From positions 13,347,277-13,411,276 of the forward strand of contig OY978526.1 of the NCBI GenBank assembly GCA_963854835.1: DNA of 64,000 nt, read 5' to 3'. The notes under the pieces are model-generated. The model saw only the letters and a list, made by a program, of their open reading frames with translations, was not told where the DNA came from and did not search any database. The position numbers were made by a program, and so were the translations under genes. Shown piece after piece: positions 37,548 through 44,054 of the stretch (position 1 is the first letter of the stretch; every line of letters begins with the position of its first letter). Origin of the DNA: Megamerina dolium. Taxonomy: Eukaryota > Arthropoda > Insecta > Diptera > Megamerinidae.

Positions 37548-40500
37548 ATGTTGGGTTTAATTGATCAGCAAAATTTGCAACAAAACCAGGTACAACAGTC
37601 ACAACAACAACAACAACAGGAACAGCAGACAAATTCAAGTTTAACATTTACTAATGTAAATAACATATGTAATAACCAGACACAGAACAACAATATTATT
37701 TTCAACAGTCGCAGTGTTGATGACATAAGTCCAGAACAGATGACAGATGCTCCCACTAGTTGCTGCTACAATTTGTGAGTTCAATTATATTTTTTATTCA
37801 TACATTTATGCTTACATTGATTTTATTCTTTGTTTCGAAATGGAACATTTGCTGTCAAATGGAACAACACTAACAGATAGTTTTTACGAAATGGCTATAA
37901 AATATAATAGAATACTAAATATGAATTTTTTTTTCTTCATATTTGCATACATATTCGATTATACACCTTACTTATAGTTGCAACTGTGCAGTAAATCTGT
38001 TGTTGATGTCGAATTAATTATGTGTCGATGTGGAAAGTAATTATTCTTTTTGTTTTACTATTTACGTTCGTAGTTTTGTGGTTTGCATATTGTGCCAATT
38101 GCTTTATTGTTTTGATTTTGCCATTCTCGTGCGGTAATTTATTCGCGTTAGTTTCGGTGTTCTGTTTGTTTTGTTTTTTATAAATTATGAATTATATATT
38201 CTAAACAATTCGTTTCAATTCGGTTCAATTCTAAACAATTCGTTTAACAAATAAAATATGTCTTGGCATAAAATTTGGTAAATGCGAAATAGAGATTAGA
38301 AATTTATGTGTATATTAATCATTTCATTGTAGTGACGAAGAACCAAGGTCAAACCAAACAAATGTAGACTCTGGTATATCAGAATTGACCATCACCTCCG
38401 ATGTATCCACTGTGGAAGATAAACATATTGATGTGGAGAATGCGTAAGTGGTTTCGAATTTTAGTAGATGTTTTATATTCATATTTGCAAATTTCTTTTC
38501 TTCTACATCGTTTAGAGGCACTGAGGATGCATTTGCCTATTTGCAGGGGCTAAATGTAAGTTTGTTTACATTGTTTATATGGAGACGAAGAGAATGTTAA
38601 TCATAATTTTCTCATCTCTTTCAGTCGGACAATTTAATGCAGTTTAGTCAGGTGAATATATTGTGTATATGTAAAATAATCTCAATAGTTATTTTGATAA
38701 GAATCTTGAAGTCAAATCGCTTTGTATTAAAATCACCAAAAAATTTGTGACGGCAGAAACGACCTAGAAGAAAAGAGTTAATATATATGTATGCATTAGA
38801 TGAAAATTTTGACTCGCATTATGCGTGAGGGATATGTTTAATTCTAGTAGACCCAATGGTTGTATCTTGTACTTTGTTATCATAATTAGCAACGAAAAAG
38901 TCTCCACTGAATTTTTGAATCGTACATCAGCATGATGTAAAGTCATTCGTTGCAGCACGAGTCCGGTTTCACGTACCTAAAATATAAAATAAATTAACAT
39001 ATATTCGTAAGCAATTAAGTACTTACTGCCATCAGATTGTCATTACAAATTTTTGCCTGTAATGCTATTTCACTGAATGATGTGATTAAAAAGATGGAAT
39101 TTGTTAATGTATCAAATATATCATATTCTTTGTGATCGATAAGTGTGTCTGCAATTGCTTCGTATTGTGTGAATAGTCCAACTGTAATACCAAATAAATG
39201 ACTTAAAATTGCTCCAAGAAACGGCATTGTCAATAATTGCAAGTATTCGGTTGAATGCGTGGTTATTGCAATATATTTGGTTCCGAGATCATCTAATTTA
39301 TCTGCCAATTCGCAAAATCGTCGCATTCGATAGTATGGTTTCTGTAGATTCATTTGCAAATCAGTTTGCAAGCAGTTCACCTCGTTGACAATACGGCGAA
39401 GATGTTGATTCAACCCATCAAACAGTGTTTTACATATAACAATTGCACCGAACAGACAATTCGGATACGTTGCGGAAACGAACAAAGGATATAGTAAATA
39501 TGCTGTATGAGACAATGGCAGATCGGGCTCATTTCGTATCTGGCGAAGCATTAGTGTTATTTCAATGACAGTCGGAATGAGTACGGCTTTTAGCGCGATC
39601 AACCGCAATGAGGATATAATTATTTCTCTGCCCATTTCAAAGTATTCAACGATTTCGAAAAGACGTACATTATTATTGAAATCCACTATACGTTTTGCAA
39701 ACCGTAGTGCATTTATGTAGCTTATCAGGGCTGCTGTTATATGCATGTACGAATATAATTGAACTATGTTCTTCATATTGAAACCGTTTCTTTCGAAATC
39801 ATTGACAATTCCCTTGCTGTACACCACAATAAATGTGAAGACGCTTCCACCCGAATACATCAGCATTATTTTCGAAACGAAAAACTTTTTGTGGCGAAAC
39901 GAGAAACTATGTGCTGATAAACCAAGTAAAGCCACAATGAAGACCACATAGCCGATCACAAATTTGATCATAACCATAGACTTCATTATGAATTGCGGTG
40001 TAAGGATATTGTAACTAAATAGAACTTGAATAAAAAACAAAAGCATACCGTATTTGCGCTAGCACAAATTTAACGAACAATGTGTGGTAATTGTTTTTTA
40101 ATTACACCAAATTGTTGATTGTATCGTTGCTTAATTGATTCATTTCAATATTTAGGTGTGTTTTGTTGTTGGCTCCTTCGAGAGAACGAAAGAGACAAAA
40201 ATGGGAATCTATAAATTCTCAATTCTCTATTGTTTACTCAATGTAATTTCACAATAGAAGATAATAGGCAATTTGATGTGGTTTCGCCAATACGATGACG
40301 TCACAATGATAATTTGATTGTTCATGCAGCCGTGAATGCGTACAAAGAATGTTTACAAACAATGATGTGTGTATTTCTCATTTGCTCAGTTCAAAGTAGA
40401 CCATCATCGTTCAAACATGAAGTTGTTAACTTTCTGCAGCCGCGATGTTCGTAGATATTTTATTCATTAATTCATTTATAGACATGATTAAACATGTGCA

Positions 40501-41802: not shown

Positions 41803-44054
41803 AAAATATACAAACACAAAACAACACAATTTTCAACAGTCGTTATTCAGAACAGCAGGATATTTTGTAGGTTTATTGACATTTATCTTTTATTATTTAT
41901 ACTTACTGCGAAATAAAATATTTTTTAAATTTTGCTCGGCGGACAATAGAATTTTAGTATGAAAATCTCTTCAAAAAAGTTGCAACAATTAAATTAATGA
42001 ATTATTTCTCATCAACTCATTGTAGCGACGGAGAATCAAGATCGAACCAAACAAATATTGACGCTGCTATAACAGAATTAACCAATACATCTGATGCATC
42101 CACTGTAGCAGATAAAAATATTGATGACGAAAATGGGTAATTTATATTTACTTATACAATTTTTGTACCTTTTAGTTTCATATTTTCAAATTTGTTTTCT
42201 GCTACATTTTTTTTTTAGCGGTACTGAGGATGCTTTTGCCTGTTTAGGACTTAATGTAAGTTTGATTTCGGTGTTGTAGTGAGCACAATGAAAAATTTAA
42301 TCATTTTTATTTACTTTTTTCAGTCGGACAATTTAATGCAGTTTAGTCAGGTAATTTTATGATGATGGTACATCGTACAATCGTACATCTGTACGTTGTA
42401 ACGCCTCTCGCCGAATCCTTGTTAATAAATCGCGAAAACTGAAGCTATTTCAGCTTATGGCGATCGAAGTGTGTTTACTGGCTCCATCAAGAGAGCTTGT
42501 GAATCATTTATGCTACTCAATGCAATTTCACAACAAACGATCATGTGTACTTTGTGGTTTCGTTAAACCAGTGACGTCACAATAACCTTTTCATTAGTCA
42601 CCCAGGCGTGAATGCTCAGTGCATAGTAGACTGTCGTCGTTGAAACATGAAGCCGTTAAATTTCTACAGGCGCGACGTTCGTAGATATCGCATTCATTTG
42701 TAGACATGATTAAACATGTATTAATGAAGAATACACTTTATATTTCTATCGTTGCAGCAATCGACCCTTTTAGAGCTGATGGCGAGAGACCCGCTAGAGT
42801 TGAAACCGGTGGGTTTTGTAGTAATTTTTGTGTGTCATTACATTTACATTAATGTAATGTGTACATTTCATATTTACAGAATTTGAATTTATTGCCAACA
42901 TTGGAGGAGCACGATATTGGTGGTTATAAATTTAAATTGGATTTATCGCTATGCACAAATCGTACAAGCAAGTCGAGTTGGACTTACTCGCCGATCCTGA
43001 ATAAAATGTATACACGCATGAATGAAATTTGTACCATTAATGCTGTGTACACGCCAAAGATGCCAATACAAAAATTACGTGTACGTGCATTATTGTGTTT
43101 TGTAAAGGAGATTAGTGAGCCTGTACTACGTTGTCAAAATCATATAAGCAAAGACACCGAAGTGCGCCCAAAGAAGCGTTACAGCATTCTACGCTGTGAG
43201 AATCCATCGACTGAGTACTGTGGCACTGCTGAGGGCAAGAGTATTTACGAACGCTATTCGGTAGTAATTCCATTGGGTAATCATCCTCTTTCAAGTACGG
43301 ATCATTCTGTAAGGCAATCAATTGCTTTGCAATTTACATGCCAAAACTCATGTATTGGTCGTAAGAAGACGAGTATCATATTTTTGCTGGAAGGCATGAA
43401 GTAAGTATAGTGATATATGATTTATATATGATTTATTGTGTGAAATTAATTGCTTCTAATTCTATTTGTCGGAAAGTGGTGAAATACTTTCACAACGTAT
43501 ACTAAATGTCAAGGTATGCAGTTGTCCAAAACGTGATCGAGCCATGGATGAGAAAATTTATGGCAATGCCAAACGTAAAAATTACGATGGTGATGGTATG
43601 TGGGTTGATCGTTATTTGCTCATTATAATTGCAAAAAAAATAAAATAAAATGTGTACATTTCAGAATTATACCGTCAACCTGTTAAGGCTCGCAAACAAG
43701 AAAAATCATATAATATTGGAATTAAAAAGGAATTCATGGGAACTTTTGATACCGACACTGAGAGTGATCCTGATAATGCAGATACAACAAATAAGCACTA
43801 TAATATTCGGCGCACACCAAGTGGTGAATTCAATATTATTATGACTTTACCTAGTAAAGATATTGCATTGTCAACGCTTGATTATGCTTATTCGAAAGTA
43901 TCCAGTAAAATGATTTTGGAACCAAATGGTCACAAATTGTATGGTAGACATTTTCGTAATCTCAGACAATTATATGGTGCGTATTATTTGTAAATTTGAG
44001 ACCAATTTTATATTTTTTCTTTTGTAATTTACAGAAAAGGGACAAAAAATGTAA
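41803..44054 (+). CDS. p53: p53 tandem copy 2, likely 3' half of a double-DBD p53
   Basis: Exons: 41803-41866, 42026-42136, 42219-42255, 42324-42350, 42758-42808, 42880-43400, 43477-43595, 43665-43976 and 44035-44054. Every phase equals the matching exon of copy 1, and most lengths do too. The first exon (ENIQTQNNTIFNSR...) starts after an acceptor in phase 1, has no ATG in frame, and matches only the end of copy 1 exon 1. The zinc ligands (RCQNH, FTCQNSCIG) and VKVCSCPKRDR are intact. The small last exon adds KGQKM and a stop; read-through of the last intron would give AYYL instead. Spliced from copy 1 the protein would have 888 residues. A shorter product from the internal promoter is also possible. 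Confidence 0.85.
42470..42757 (+). promoter_or_regulatory. Candidate internal p53 promoter / 5' leader, copy 2
   Basis: Partner of 40160-40541, with the CRE palindrome TGACGTCA at 42572-42579 in the same surroundings and GACGTTCGTAGATAT-like leader sequence before exon 13. Retained while the nested receptor gene was lost. Confidence 0.5.

What the first reader, a model, noticed from the sequence alone, without database searches (positions are those of the whole stretch)
37548..44054. Tandem p53 duplication predicted to encode one protein with two DNA-binding domains
Both copies have full, intact DBDs and C-terminal regions. Copy 2 has no start exon; its first exon begins in phase 1, exactly the phase left by the copy 1 donor at 41724, and the copy 1 stop (41729) lies inside that intron. 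The ancestral last exon (E-KGQKM) survives only after copy 2. In-frame splicing gives an 888-residue double p53, which could bind DNA as an intramolecular dimer of domains. I know of no described natural double-DBD p53.
Basis: partly seen in the sequence, partly recalled or inferred. Interest (0 to 1): 0.93.

Follow-up and report, generated by a model that had tools for sequence, protein, structure and literature searches.

The report
Fly p53 with two DNA-binding domains
The only p53 locus found in this fly's 500-million-base assembly holds two intact p53 copies in tandem whose predicted exons join in one reading frame, so it would make a single double-length p53 protein with two DNA-binding domains that likely acts like a p53 dimer built as one chain.

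Summary
Window 37548-44054 (+) can be read as 17 exons with 16 GT-AG introns and one 888-codon frame (101.5 kDa) holding two P53 DNA-binding domains and two C-terminal regions. Copy 1 lacks the ancestral last exon; copy 2's first exon (41803-41866) matches the interior of exon 1 and has no start. An in-frame unequal exchange would give this; where exon 9's acceptor came from is unresolved. The copies are 81% identical in protein, sister on the tree, keep 44 and 45 of 46 columns invariant in 12 other flies, and change at similar rates, so neither assembly duplication nor decay fits. They are the only p53 locus the Pfam model finds in the 8-contig assembly. None of 50 related p53s retrieved (at most 636 aa) is double. 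RNA evidence is missing: separate products (stop at 41729, possible start at 41997) or in-frame exon skipping are not excluded. Best reading: the default mRNA splices 41723 to 41803 and makes a single-chain p53 dimer, two chains forming the usual four-domain complex (predicted). A new variant of a known family; the searches made found no description of it.

The parts
37548..37774 (+). Copy 1 exon 1: start codon and Q/N-rich N-terminus
   Evidence: ATG opens the 888-codon chain; donor GTGAGT
38333..38651 (+). Copy 1 exons 2-4 (38333-38443, 38516-38555, 38625-38651): N-terminal region incl. LQGLNSDNLMQFSQQS
   Evidence: GT-AG, in phase; conserved with fly p53s
38764..40058 (-). Nested antisense 7tm_7 chemosensory receptor gene in intron 4 of copy 1 (main ORF 39018-40058; probable last exon in ORF 38764-38976). 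Not part of the p53 protein
   Evidence: PF08395 E 1.6e-15 for the main ORF; only its own match in the genome; last exon read by eye
40542..41353 (+). Copy 1 exons 5-7 (40542-40592, 40651-41174, 41235-41353): DNA-binding domain 1
   Evidence: PF00870 2.5e-55, residues 161-354
41418..41723 (+). Copy 1 exon 8: C-terminal region, likely oligomerisation domain 1
   Evidence: weak match to PDB 2rp4 (Drosophila p53), E 0.018; PF11619 0.025, below cut-off
41724..41802 (+). Intron 8 (79 nt), the joining intron; TAG in frame at 41729-41731 if retained; stands where the last intron stands in copy 2
   Evidence: donor at the same exon end as intron 16; donor 8.6 and acceptor 9.1 within the range of the gene's introns (3.4-11.8 and 0.5-13.2, leave-one-out matrix of this gene's own 16 introns); interior not significantly like intron 16
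41803..41866 (+). Exon 9, joining exon: 3' part from the interior of exon 1, 5' end of unresolved origin; phase 1 in, phase 2 out
41912..41917 (+). AATAAA inside intron 9, possible poly(A) signal for a copy-1-only transcript (rival reading)
41997..42025 (+). ATG in intron 9 open in frame into exon 10 (MNYFSSTHC-SDGESR), possible separate start for copy 2 (rival reading)
   Evidence: no in-frame ATG at the matching place of copy 1
42026..42350 (+). Copy 2 exons 10-12 (42026-42136, 42219-42255, 42324-42350): N-terminal region between the two halves
   Evidence: dN/dS to copy 1 0.17, bootstrap 0.07-0.38
42758..43595 (+). Copy 2 exons 13-15 (42758-42808, 42880-43400, 43477-43595): DNA-binding domain 2
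   Evidence: PF00870 5.8e-56; dN/dS of exons 14-15 0.15, 0.08-0.26
43665..43976 (+). Copy 2 exon 16: C-terminal region with oligomerisation domain 2
   Evidence: PDB 2rp4 E 3.1e-5
44035..44054 (+). Exon 17: ancestral last exon (E)KGQKM-stop
   Evidence: Teleopsis and tephritid p53s end at the same place (...DKAEKI...EKFQRK)

Best explanation
This fly's only detected p53 locus holds two tandem p53 copies, each with an intact DNA-binding domain and a p53-type C-terminal region, whose predicted 17 exons form one reading frame and are likely spliced into one mRNA for an 888-residue double p53. Origin (inferred): an in-frame unequal exchange, with one break between the last intron's donor and the stop of one copy and the other in the interior of exon 1, removed the end of the first copy and the start of the second. 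Splicing (predicted): the 79-nt joining intron is removed like the gene's other short introns, and its in-frame TAG ends a shorter product only when the intron is retained. Function (inferred): with DNA-binding domains near residues 153-348 and 566-760 of one chain, one molecule would supply both domains for a p53 half-site, and two molecules, through their oligomerisation regions, would form the four-domain complex that ordinary p53 makes from four chains. Shown: tandem copies, open frame, constraint on both DNA-binding domains, one locus found. Not shown: RNA, protein, assembly, DNA binding.
For: All 16 introns GT-AG, 888-codon frame. Copy 1 has no last exon of its own before exon 9, and exon 9 continues into exon-1-interior sequence in frame. 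Both DBDs match Pfam P53 at about 1e-55. Of 46 columns invariant in 12 other flies, copy 1 keeps 44 and copy 2 keeps 45, its single miss being the start Met. Similar rates: of 12 outgroups the most uneven split of changes unique to copy 1 / copy 2 is 11/19 (Rhagoletis, chi-square 2.13), others for example 13/16 (Anastrepha) and 15/14 (Teleopsis); tree branches 0.13 and 0.15. Copy 2's exons 10-12 are constrained, dN/dS 0.17 (0.07-0.38), so they have been translated, and the fused frame supplies a start for them. Intron 8's splice sites score in the range of the gene's other introns. One p53 locus found in a 500.5-Mb, 8-contig assembly.
Against: No RNA or protein evidence; no retrocopy carrying the spliced junction. 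A copy-2-only start is possible at ATG 41997, and AATAAA at 41912 could end a copy-1-only mRNA. Survival of exon 9's frame and splice sites under no selection is not very improbable (0.09-0.18), and its conserved block alone does not exclude neutrality (P 0.21 or 0.045, by the dS used). My first claim that intron 8 is homologous in sequence to the last intron did not survive a stricter control (568 of 2000 shuffles). The oligomerisation exon is weakly constrained between copies (dN/dS 0.79, 0.45-1.72; neutral test P 0.99 or 0.09; the three estimators give 0.34-0.77), and copy 1's match to the solved Drosophila domain is weak (E 0.018). The constraint test weakens with the lower dS: P 0.034 for exons 10-12 and 0.13 for exons 10-13. 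All eight homologous exon skips tested are also in frame, so single-length products are open too.
Confidence: 0.72

Rival explanations
1. Two separate proteins. Copy 1 ends in retained intron 8 (470 aa, stop 41729, poly(A) near 41912) and copy 2 is transcribed from its own internal promoter, starting at ATG 41997 (MNYFSSTHC...) or, as a short form, at the ATG in exon 13.
For: In-frame stop just behind the copy 1 donor; AATAAA at 41912 and an open in-frame ATG at 41997; Drosophila p53 makes its isoforms from alternative promoters (passages of PMC12958821 and PMC8758136); a TGACGTCA site lies in intron 4 of each copy (40296, 42572).
Against: Intron 9 is 159 nt, so a promoter for ATG 41997 would have to lie largely within copy 1's last exons; that ATG has no in-frame counterpart in copy 1. 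A start in exon 13 leaves exons 10-12 untranslated, yet they look constrained. Intron 8 splice sites, exon 9 frame and phases have all survived, though by themselves not improbably so.
Confidence: 0.15
2. A mix-and-match gene: alternative splicing skips one set of homologous exons, giving mainly single-length p53s with exons from either copy (for example exons 1-8+17, or 1-4+13-17).
For: All eight homologous skips tested are in frame and give 474-476 residues ending in EKGQKM.
Against: Follows automatically from any whole-exon duplication, so it is not evidence by itself; signals for mutually exclusive splicing were not searched for; long skips would compete with short introns of ordinary score.
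Confidence: 0.1
3. Assembly artefact or uncollapsed haplotype.
For: Tandem near-repeats are a common assembly error (recalled); long identical runs (83 and 73 nt) exist.
Against: 112 of 571 silent sites differ, intron pairs are 55-78% identical apart from one at 95%, no N in the window, and no other p53 locus was found in the assembly. The identical runs fit gene conversion between the halves (max run 42 silent sites, 74 of 10000 permutations as long).
Confidence: 0.02
4. Copy 2 is a decaying, untranslated remnant.
For: No start codon of its own in exon 9; oligomerisation exon dN/dS 0.79.
Against: Open frame throughout; DNA-binding exons 14-15 have 26 nonsynonymous changes on both branches where 78-84 would be expected on copy 2's branch alone if neutral (P 7.4e-12 or less); 45 of 46 invariant columns kept.
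Confidence: 0.01

Closest known systems
Drosophila melanogaster p53 (p53A/B/C/E isoforms from one gene)
   Same: Same family, DBD, C-terminal domain of the 2rp4 type (copy 2) and N-terminal LQGLNS..NLMQFSQQS segment; single p53 locus
   Different: One DBD per chain; isoforms differ at the N-terminus (passages)
Tephritid and Teleopsis p53 (Anastrepha, Rhagoletis, Ceratitis, Eurosta, Teleopsis)
   Same: Closest by sequence (46-49% over about 80% of copy 1); same C-terminal end as the window's last exon
   Different: Single DBD, 466-510 aa
Independent p53 gene duplications (vertebrate p53/p63/p73, Ciona p53/p73-a and -b, Helobdella robusta)
   Same: Extra p53 family copies by gene duplication (passages of PMC8901663 and PMC9091270)
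   Different: Described there as separate family members, not two DBDs in one reading frame
Blowfly p53 isoform X2 (Calliphora vicina P0012, Lucilia sericata P0014)
   Same: A fly p53 predicted to carry a second DNA-binding domain
   Different: The extra domain is a Tc3-type transposase HTH (PF11427), not a second p53 DBD

Membership tests
p53 family | P53 DNA-binding domain over the curated Pfam cut-off | tested here: met
   PF00870, 187.8 and 189.9 bits against a cut-off of 27, one per half
p53 family | Zinc ligands and DNA-contact residues (human C176, H179, C238, S241, C242, R248, R273, C277, R280; numbering recalled) | tested here: met
   Both halves keep RC.NH, C.NSC..R and C.CPKRDR; the R273 position is Lys in all 14 rows. 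Mapping to human residues by eye and from recall
p53 family | C-terminal oligomerisation domain | tested here: inconclusive
   Copy 2 matches Drosophila p53 2rp4 at 3.1e-5, copy 1 at 0.018; PF11619 below cut-off in both, as in Anastrepha, Ceratitis and Teleopsis
p53 family | N-terminal transactivation region | not testable with these tools
   Q/N-rich N-terminus present; activity needs an assay
p53 family | One DBD per polypeptide (as in the 50 relatives retrieved) | tested here: not met
   Two DBDs in one open frame; none of the 50 relatives has a repeated core motif. This is the variation, not a bar to membership: each half meets the DBD criteria
p53 family | Tetramer on DNA | not testable with these tools
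   inferred only

The most novel reading that the evidence does not exclude
This fly has given up single p53 altogether: its sole p53 is a natural single-chain dimer, so every p53 complex is a dimer of double molecules with fixed pairing of two diverged halves, letting each half specialise (one oligomerisation region for pairing within the chain, one between chains) and changing how p53 responds to its own concentration.
Probability: 0.45. Interest if true: 0.92.

Novelty: new variant of a known kind. Interest (0 to 1): 0.8.

Why it matters
p53 normally works as four separate chains, and dominant-negative effects, isoform mixing and cooperative DNA binding all follow from that. A natural single-chain double p53 would be an evolutionary experiment on what oligomerisation is for: it would remove one assembly step, fix which two DNA-binding domains sit together, and make mixed tetramers with short isoforms harder. 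If confirmed, it makes directly testable whether p53 needs free exchange of subunits, and it shows how a conserved transcription factor can change its architecture in one in-frame exchange while both DNA-binding halves stay under constraint.

Tried and rejected
Assembly duplication or haplotype copy: rejected on divergence and single locus. Pseudogene copy 2: rejected. Exon 9 as a proven chimera with the ancestral last exon: withdrawn. Intron 8 against intron 16 scored 40, with 0 of 500 plain shuffles as high and above the 11 other short introns tested against intron 16 (-4 to 35.5), but with the splice-site ends held fixed 568 of 2000 shuffles reach it; the origin of exon 9's acceptor stays open. 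A retrocopy that would record the spliced 41723/41803 junction was sought in the genome and not found; the matches were these exons and the homologous end of exon 16. Other p53 pieces in the window: no significant ones beyond the two copies. Double-length relatives: three protein searches gave 50 proteins (P0001-P0050; 43 with a fly name, 7 unnamed 'lgn'), longest 636 aa, none with two DBD core motifs. These searches reach only proteins that share short words with fly p53, so a double p53 in a distant animal would have been missed. Literature: eight searches of the open-licence PMC library bear on the question. In what they listed (3 of 3, 9 of 10, 1 of 1, 3 of 3, 10 of 580, 0, 8 of 9 and 0 papers) I saw no natural double-DBD p53; these are titles and starts of abstracts. 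One search (p53-like domain in Nasonia) found nothing, and one search was on Drosophila isoforms. Passages were seen of PMC12958821, PMC8758136, PMC8901663 and PMC9091270. Subscription papers are not held, so absence is weak evidence. A CRE-bearing stretch of intron 4 shared by both copies was considered as an internal promoter, but it is not clearly better conserved than introns 2 and 3, so it is only a lead. The fly was not identified to species: no retrieved p53 is close enough. No structure was predicted: the spliced protein is not read letter for letter from the DNA, which the tool asks for.
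Full report
What is there. The + strand from 37548 to 44054 was reassembled exon by exon. All 16 introns begin GT and end AG, phases match at every junction, and the 17 exons translate to 888 residues before a stop, a protein of 101.5 kDa. Two P53 DNA-binding domains are found at 2.5e-55 and 5.8e-56, roughly residues 153-348 and 566-760 (motif positions). The copies are identical at 334 of 411 aligned residues (81%). The window contains no N.

The joining exon. After copy 1's exon 8 the donor GTACGTAG carries an in-frame TAG at 41729-41731, so retention gives a 470-aa p53 ending YGT. 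No copy of the last exon with its stop follows. Instead, after a 79-nt intron, exon 9 continues in frame into sequence that matches the interior of exon 1 (QTQNNNIIFNSR against QTQNNT-IFNSR; blastn piece of 41 nt, 78%, E 0.003; codons). So the end of one copy and the start of the other are missing between the halves, which an in-frame unequal exchange would explain (inference). I first took exon 9 for a chimera whose acceptor and first bases (AG|AAAA) come from the ancestral last exon: intron 8 aligns with the last intron at a score of 40, with 0 of 500 plain shuffles as high, and 11 other short introns of the gene score -4 to 35.5 against that last intron. But when the splice-site ends are held fixed, 568 of 2000 shuffles reach 40. 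The origin of the acceptor is therefore unresolved. Teleopsis and tephritid p53s end at the same place as exon 17, so that exon is ancestral.

Both halves are kept. In an alignment of both copies with 12 of the 50 retrieved relatives, 46 columns are invariant in the 12. Copy 1 keeps 44 (it has T for I at 274 and A for G at 418) and copy 2 keeps 45, missing only the start Met. Changes unique to copy 1 and copy 2 are similar in number with the 12 outgroups; the most uneven is 11 and 19 (Rhagoletis, chi-square 2.13), others for example 13 and 16 (Anastrepha) and 15 and 14 (Teleopsis). In a tree of the two copies and 23 of the 50 relatives the copies are sisters (100/100) with branches of 0.13 and 0.15 behind a stem of 0.63. 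This puts the duplication after the split from the relatives on that tree, with the caution that exchange between the copies (below) would also pull them together. Pairwise dN/dS is 0.28 (bootstrap 0.20-0.38) overall, 0.15 (0.08-0.26) in the main DNA-binding exons and 0.17 (0.07-0.38) in exons 10-12; the three estimators give 0.16-0.23 for the DNA-binding domain and 0.26-0.48 for the N-terminal part. If copy 2's DNA-binding exons had been neutral, 78-84 nonsynonymous changes would be expected on its branch, where 26 are seen on both branches together. For exons 10-12 the same test gives P 5.7e-05 with the local dS and 0.034 with the lower whole-gene dS; for exons 10-13 it gives 0.00047 and 0.13.

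Results against a simple story. The oligomerisation exon shows dN/dS 0.79 (0.45-1.72) between the copies (0.34-0.77 by the three estimators), the neutral test there gives P 0.99 or 0.09, and copy 1 matches the solved Drosophila domain 2rp4 only at 0.018 against 3.1e-5 for copy 2. Part of this is low dS, because the copies seem to exchange sequence: the longest run of identical silent sites is 42 of 571, reached in 74 of 10000 permutations, and silent difference falls from 54 of 161 sites around exons 10-12 to 0 of 34 at the end of exon 16. I read this as gene conversion. The region may also be specialising or relaxing; the data do not decide. Neutral survival of exon 9's frame and splice sites has a simulated probability of 0.09-0.18, and the conserved block of exon 9 gives P 0.21 or 0.045, so these arguments are moderate, not strong.

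One locus. The window lies at 13.35-13.41 Mb of contig 2 of an assembly of 500,518,613 bases in 8 contigs. The Pfam P53 model finds four exon matches in it, all in this locus, two for each copy (the tool scores only its best candidates, so a strongly diverged copy could be missed). The spliced 8-9-10 junction finds only these exons and the homologous end of exon 16, no retrocopy.

How it most likely works. Shown: one locus found, one open frame over predicted exons, two constrained DNA-binding domains. Predicted: intron 8, with splice sites in the range of the gene's other introns, is removed by default and a double p53 results. Inferred: since fly p53 acts as a tetramer through a C-terminal domain (passage of PMC8758136; structure described in passages of PMC9091270), a chain with two such units would behave as a built-in dimer and two chains would make the four-domain complex.

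Rivals. Drosophila p53 uses alternative promoters (passages), so copy 2 might be expressed alone. An ATG at 41997 in intron 9 is open into exon 10, and AATAAA at 41912 could end copy 1. But intron 9 is only 159 nt, that ATG has no in-frame counterpart in copy 1, and a start in exon 13 would leave exons 10-12 untranslated although they look constrained. Because homologous exons share phase, all eight skips tested give in-frame single p53s of 474-476 residues, so single-length by-products are plausible beside the double form.

Known or new. Three protein searches gave 50 proteins, 43 with fly names and 7 unnamed, none longer than 636 aa and none with a repeated core motif. Separate p53 paralogues are known from several animals (passages). 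Eight literature searches of the open-licence library showed nothing on a natural double-DBD p53 in what they listed; one of them listed only 10 of 580 papers, and listings were seen as titles and abstract starts. I therefore call it a new variant of a known family, with the caution that annotation of this fly and subscription papers were out of reach.

Noticed in passing
window 38764-40058 (-): A 7tm_7 chemosensory receptor gene (PF08395, 1.6e-15) lies antisense within intron 4 of p53 copy 1; the matching intron of copy 2 is only 407 nt, and a genome search finds no second copy.
   Followed up: partly
window 17914-19380 (+): Two ORFs, the second with a TnpB/Cas12f-like zinc-ribbon domain (PF07282, 5.7e-10), the first without a Pfam match: looks like a Fanzor-type (eukaryotic TnpB relative; name recalled) element in a fly genome.
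   Followed up: partly
proteins P0012 and P0014 (Calliphora vicina, Lucilia sericata p53 isoform X2): Blowfly p53 predicted with an N-terminal Tc3-type transposase HTH domain (PF11427): a transposase-p53 fusion, another way a fly p53 may gain a second DNA-binding domain.
   Followed up: partly
window 40296 and 42572: A perfect TGACGTCA site in intron 4 of each p53 copy, two of only four in the window, within a stretch still alignable between copies: possible internal promoter.
   Followed up: partly
window 43127-43209, 43855-43927, 43596-43664: Identical runs of 83 and 73 nt and a 95%-identical intron amid otherwise diverged copies: likely gene conversion between the two p53 halves.
   Followed up: yes
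window 20036-21550 and 26317-26706 (-): Hsp70-family gene split over a long intron (PF00012 in both ORFs); the downstream ORF runs out in ...GYIFSCKQVCR before the model's end (profile 543 of 599), so further exons or a truncation should be checked.
   Followed up: no
window 49473-52525 (+) and 54620-55675 (-): Two pieces, in opposite orientation, of a non-LTR reverse-transcriptase element (recognised by eye from the ORF translations; no family search made).
   Followed up: no
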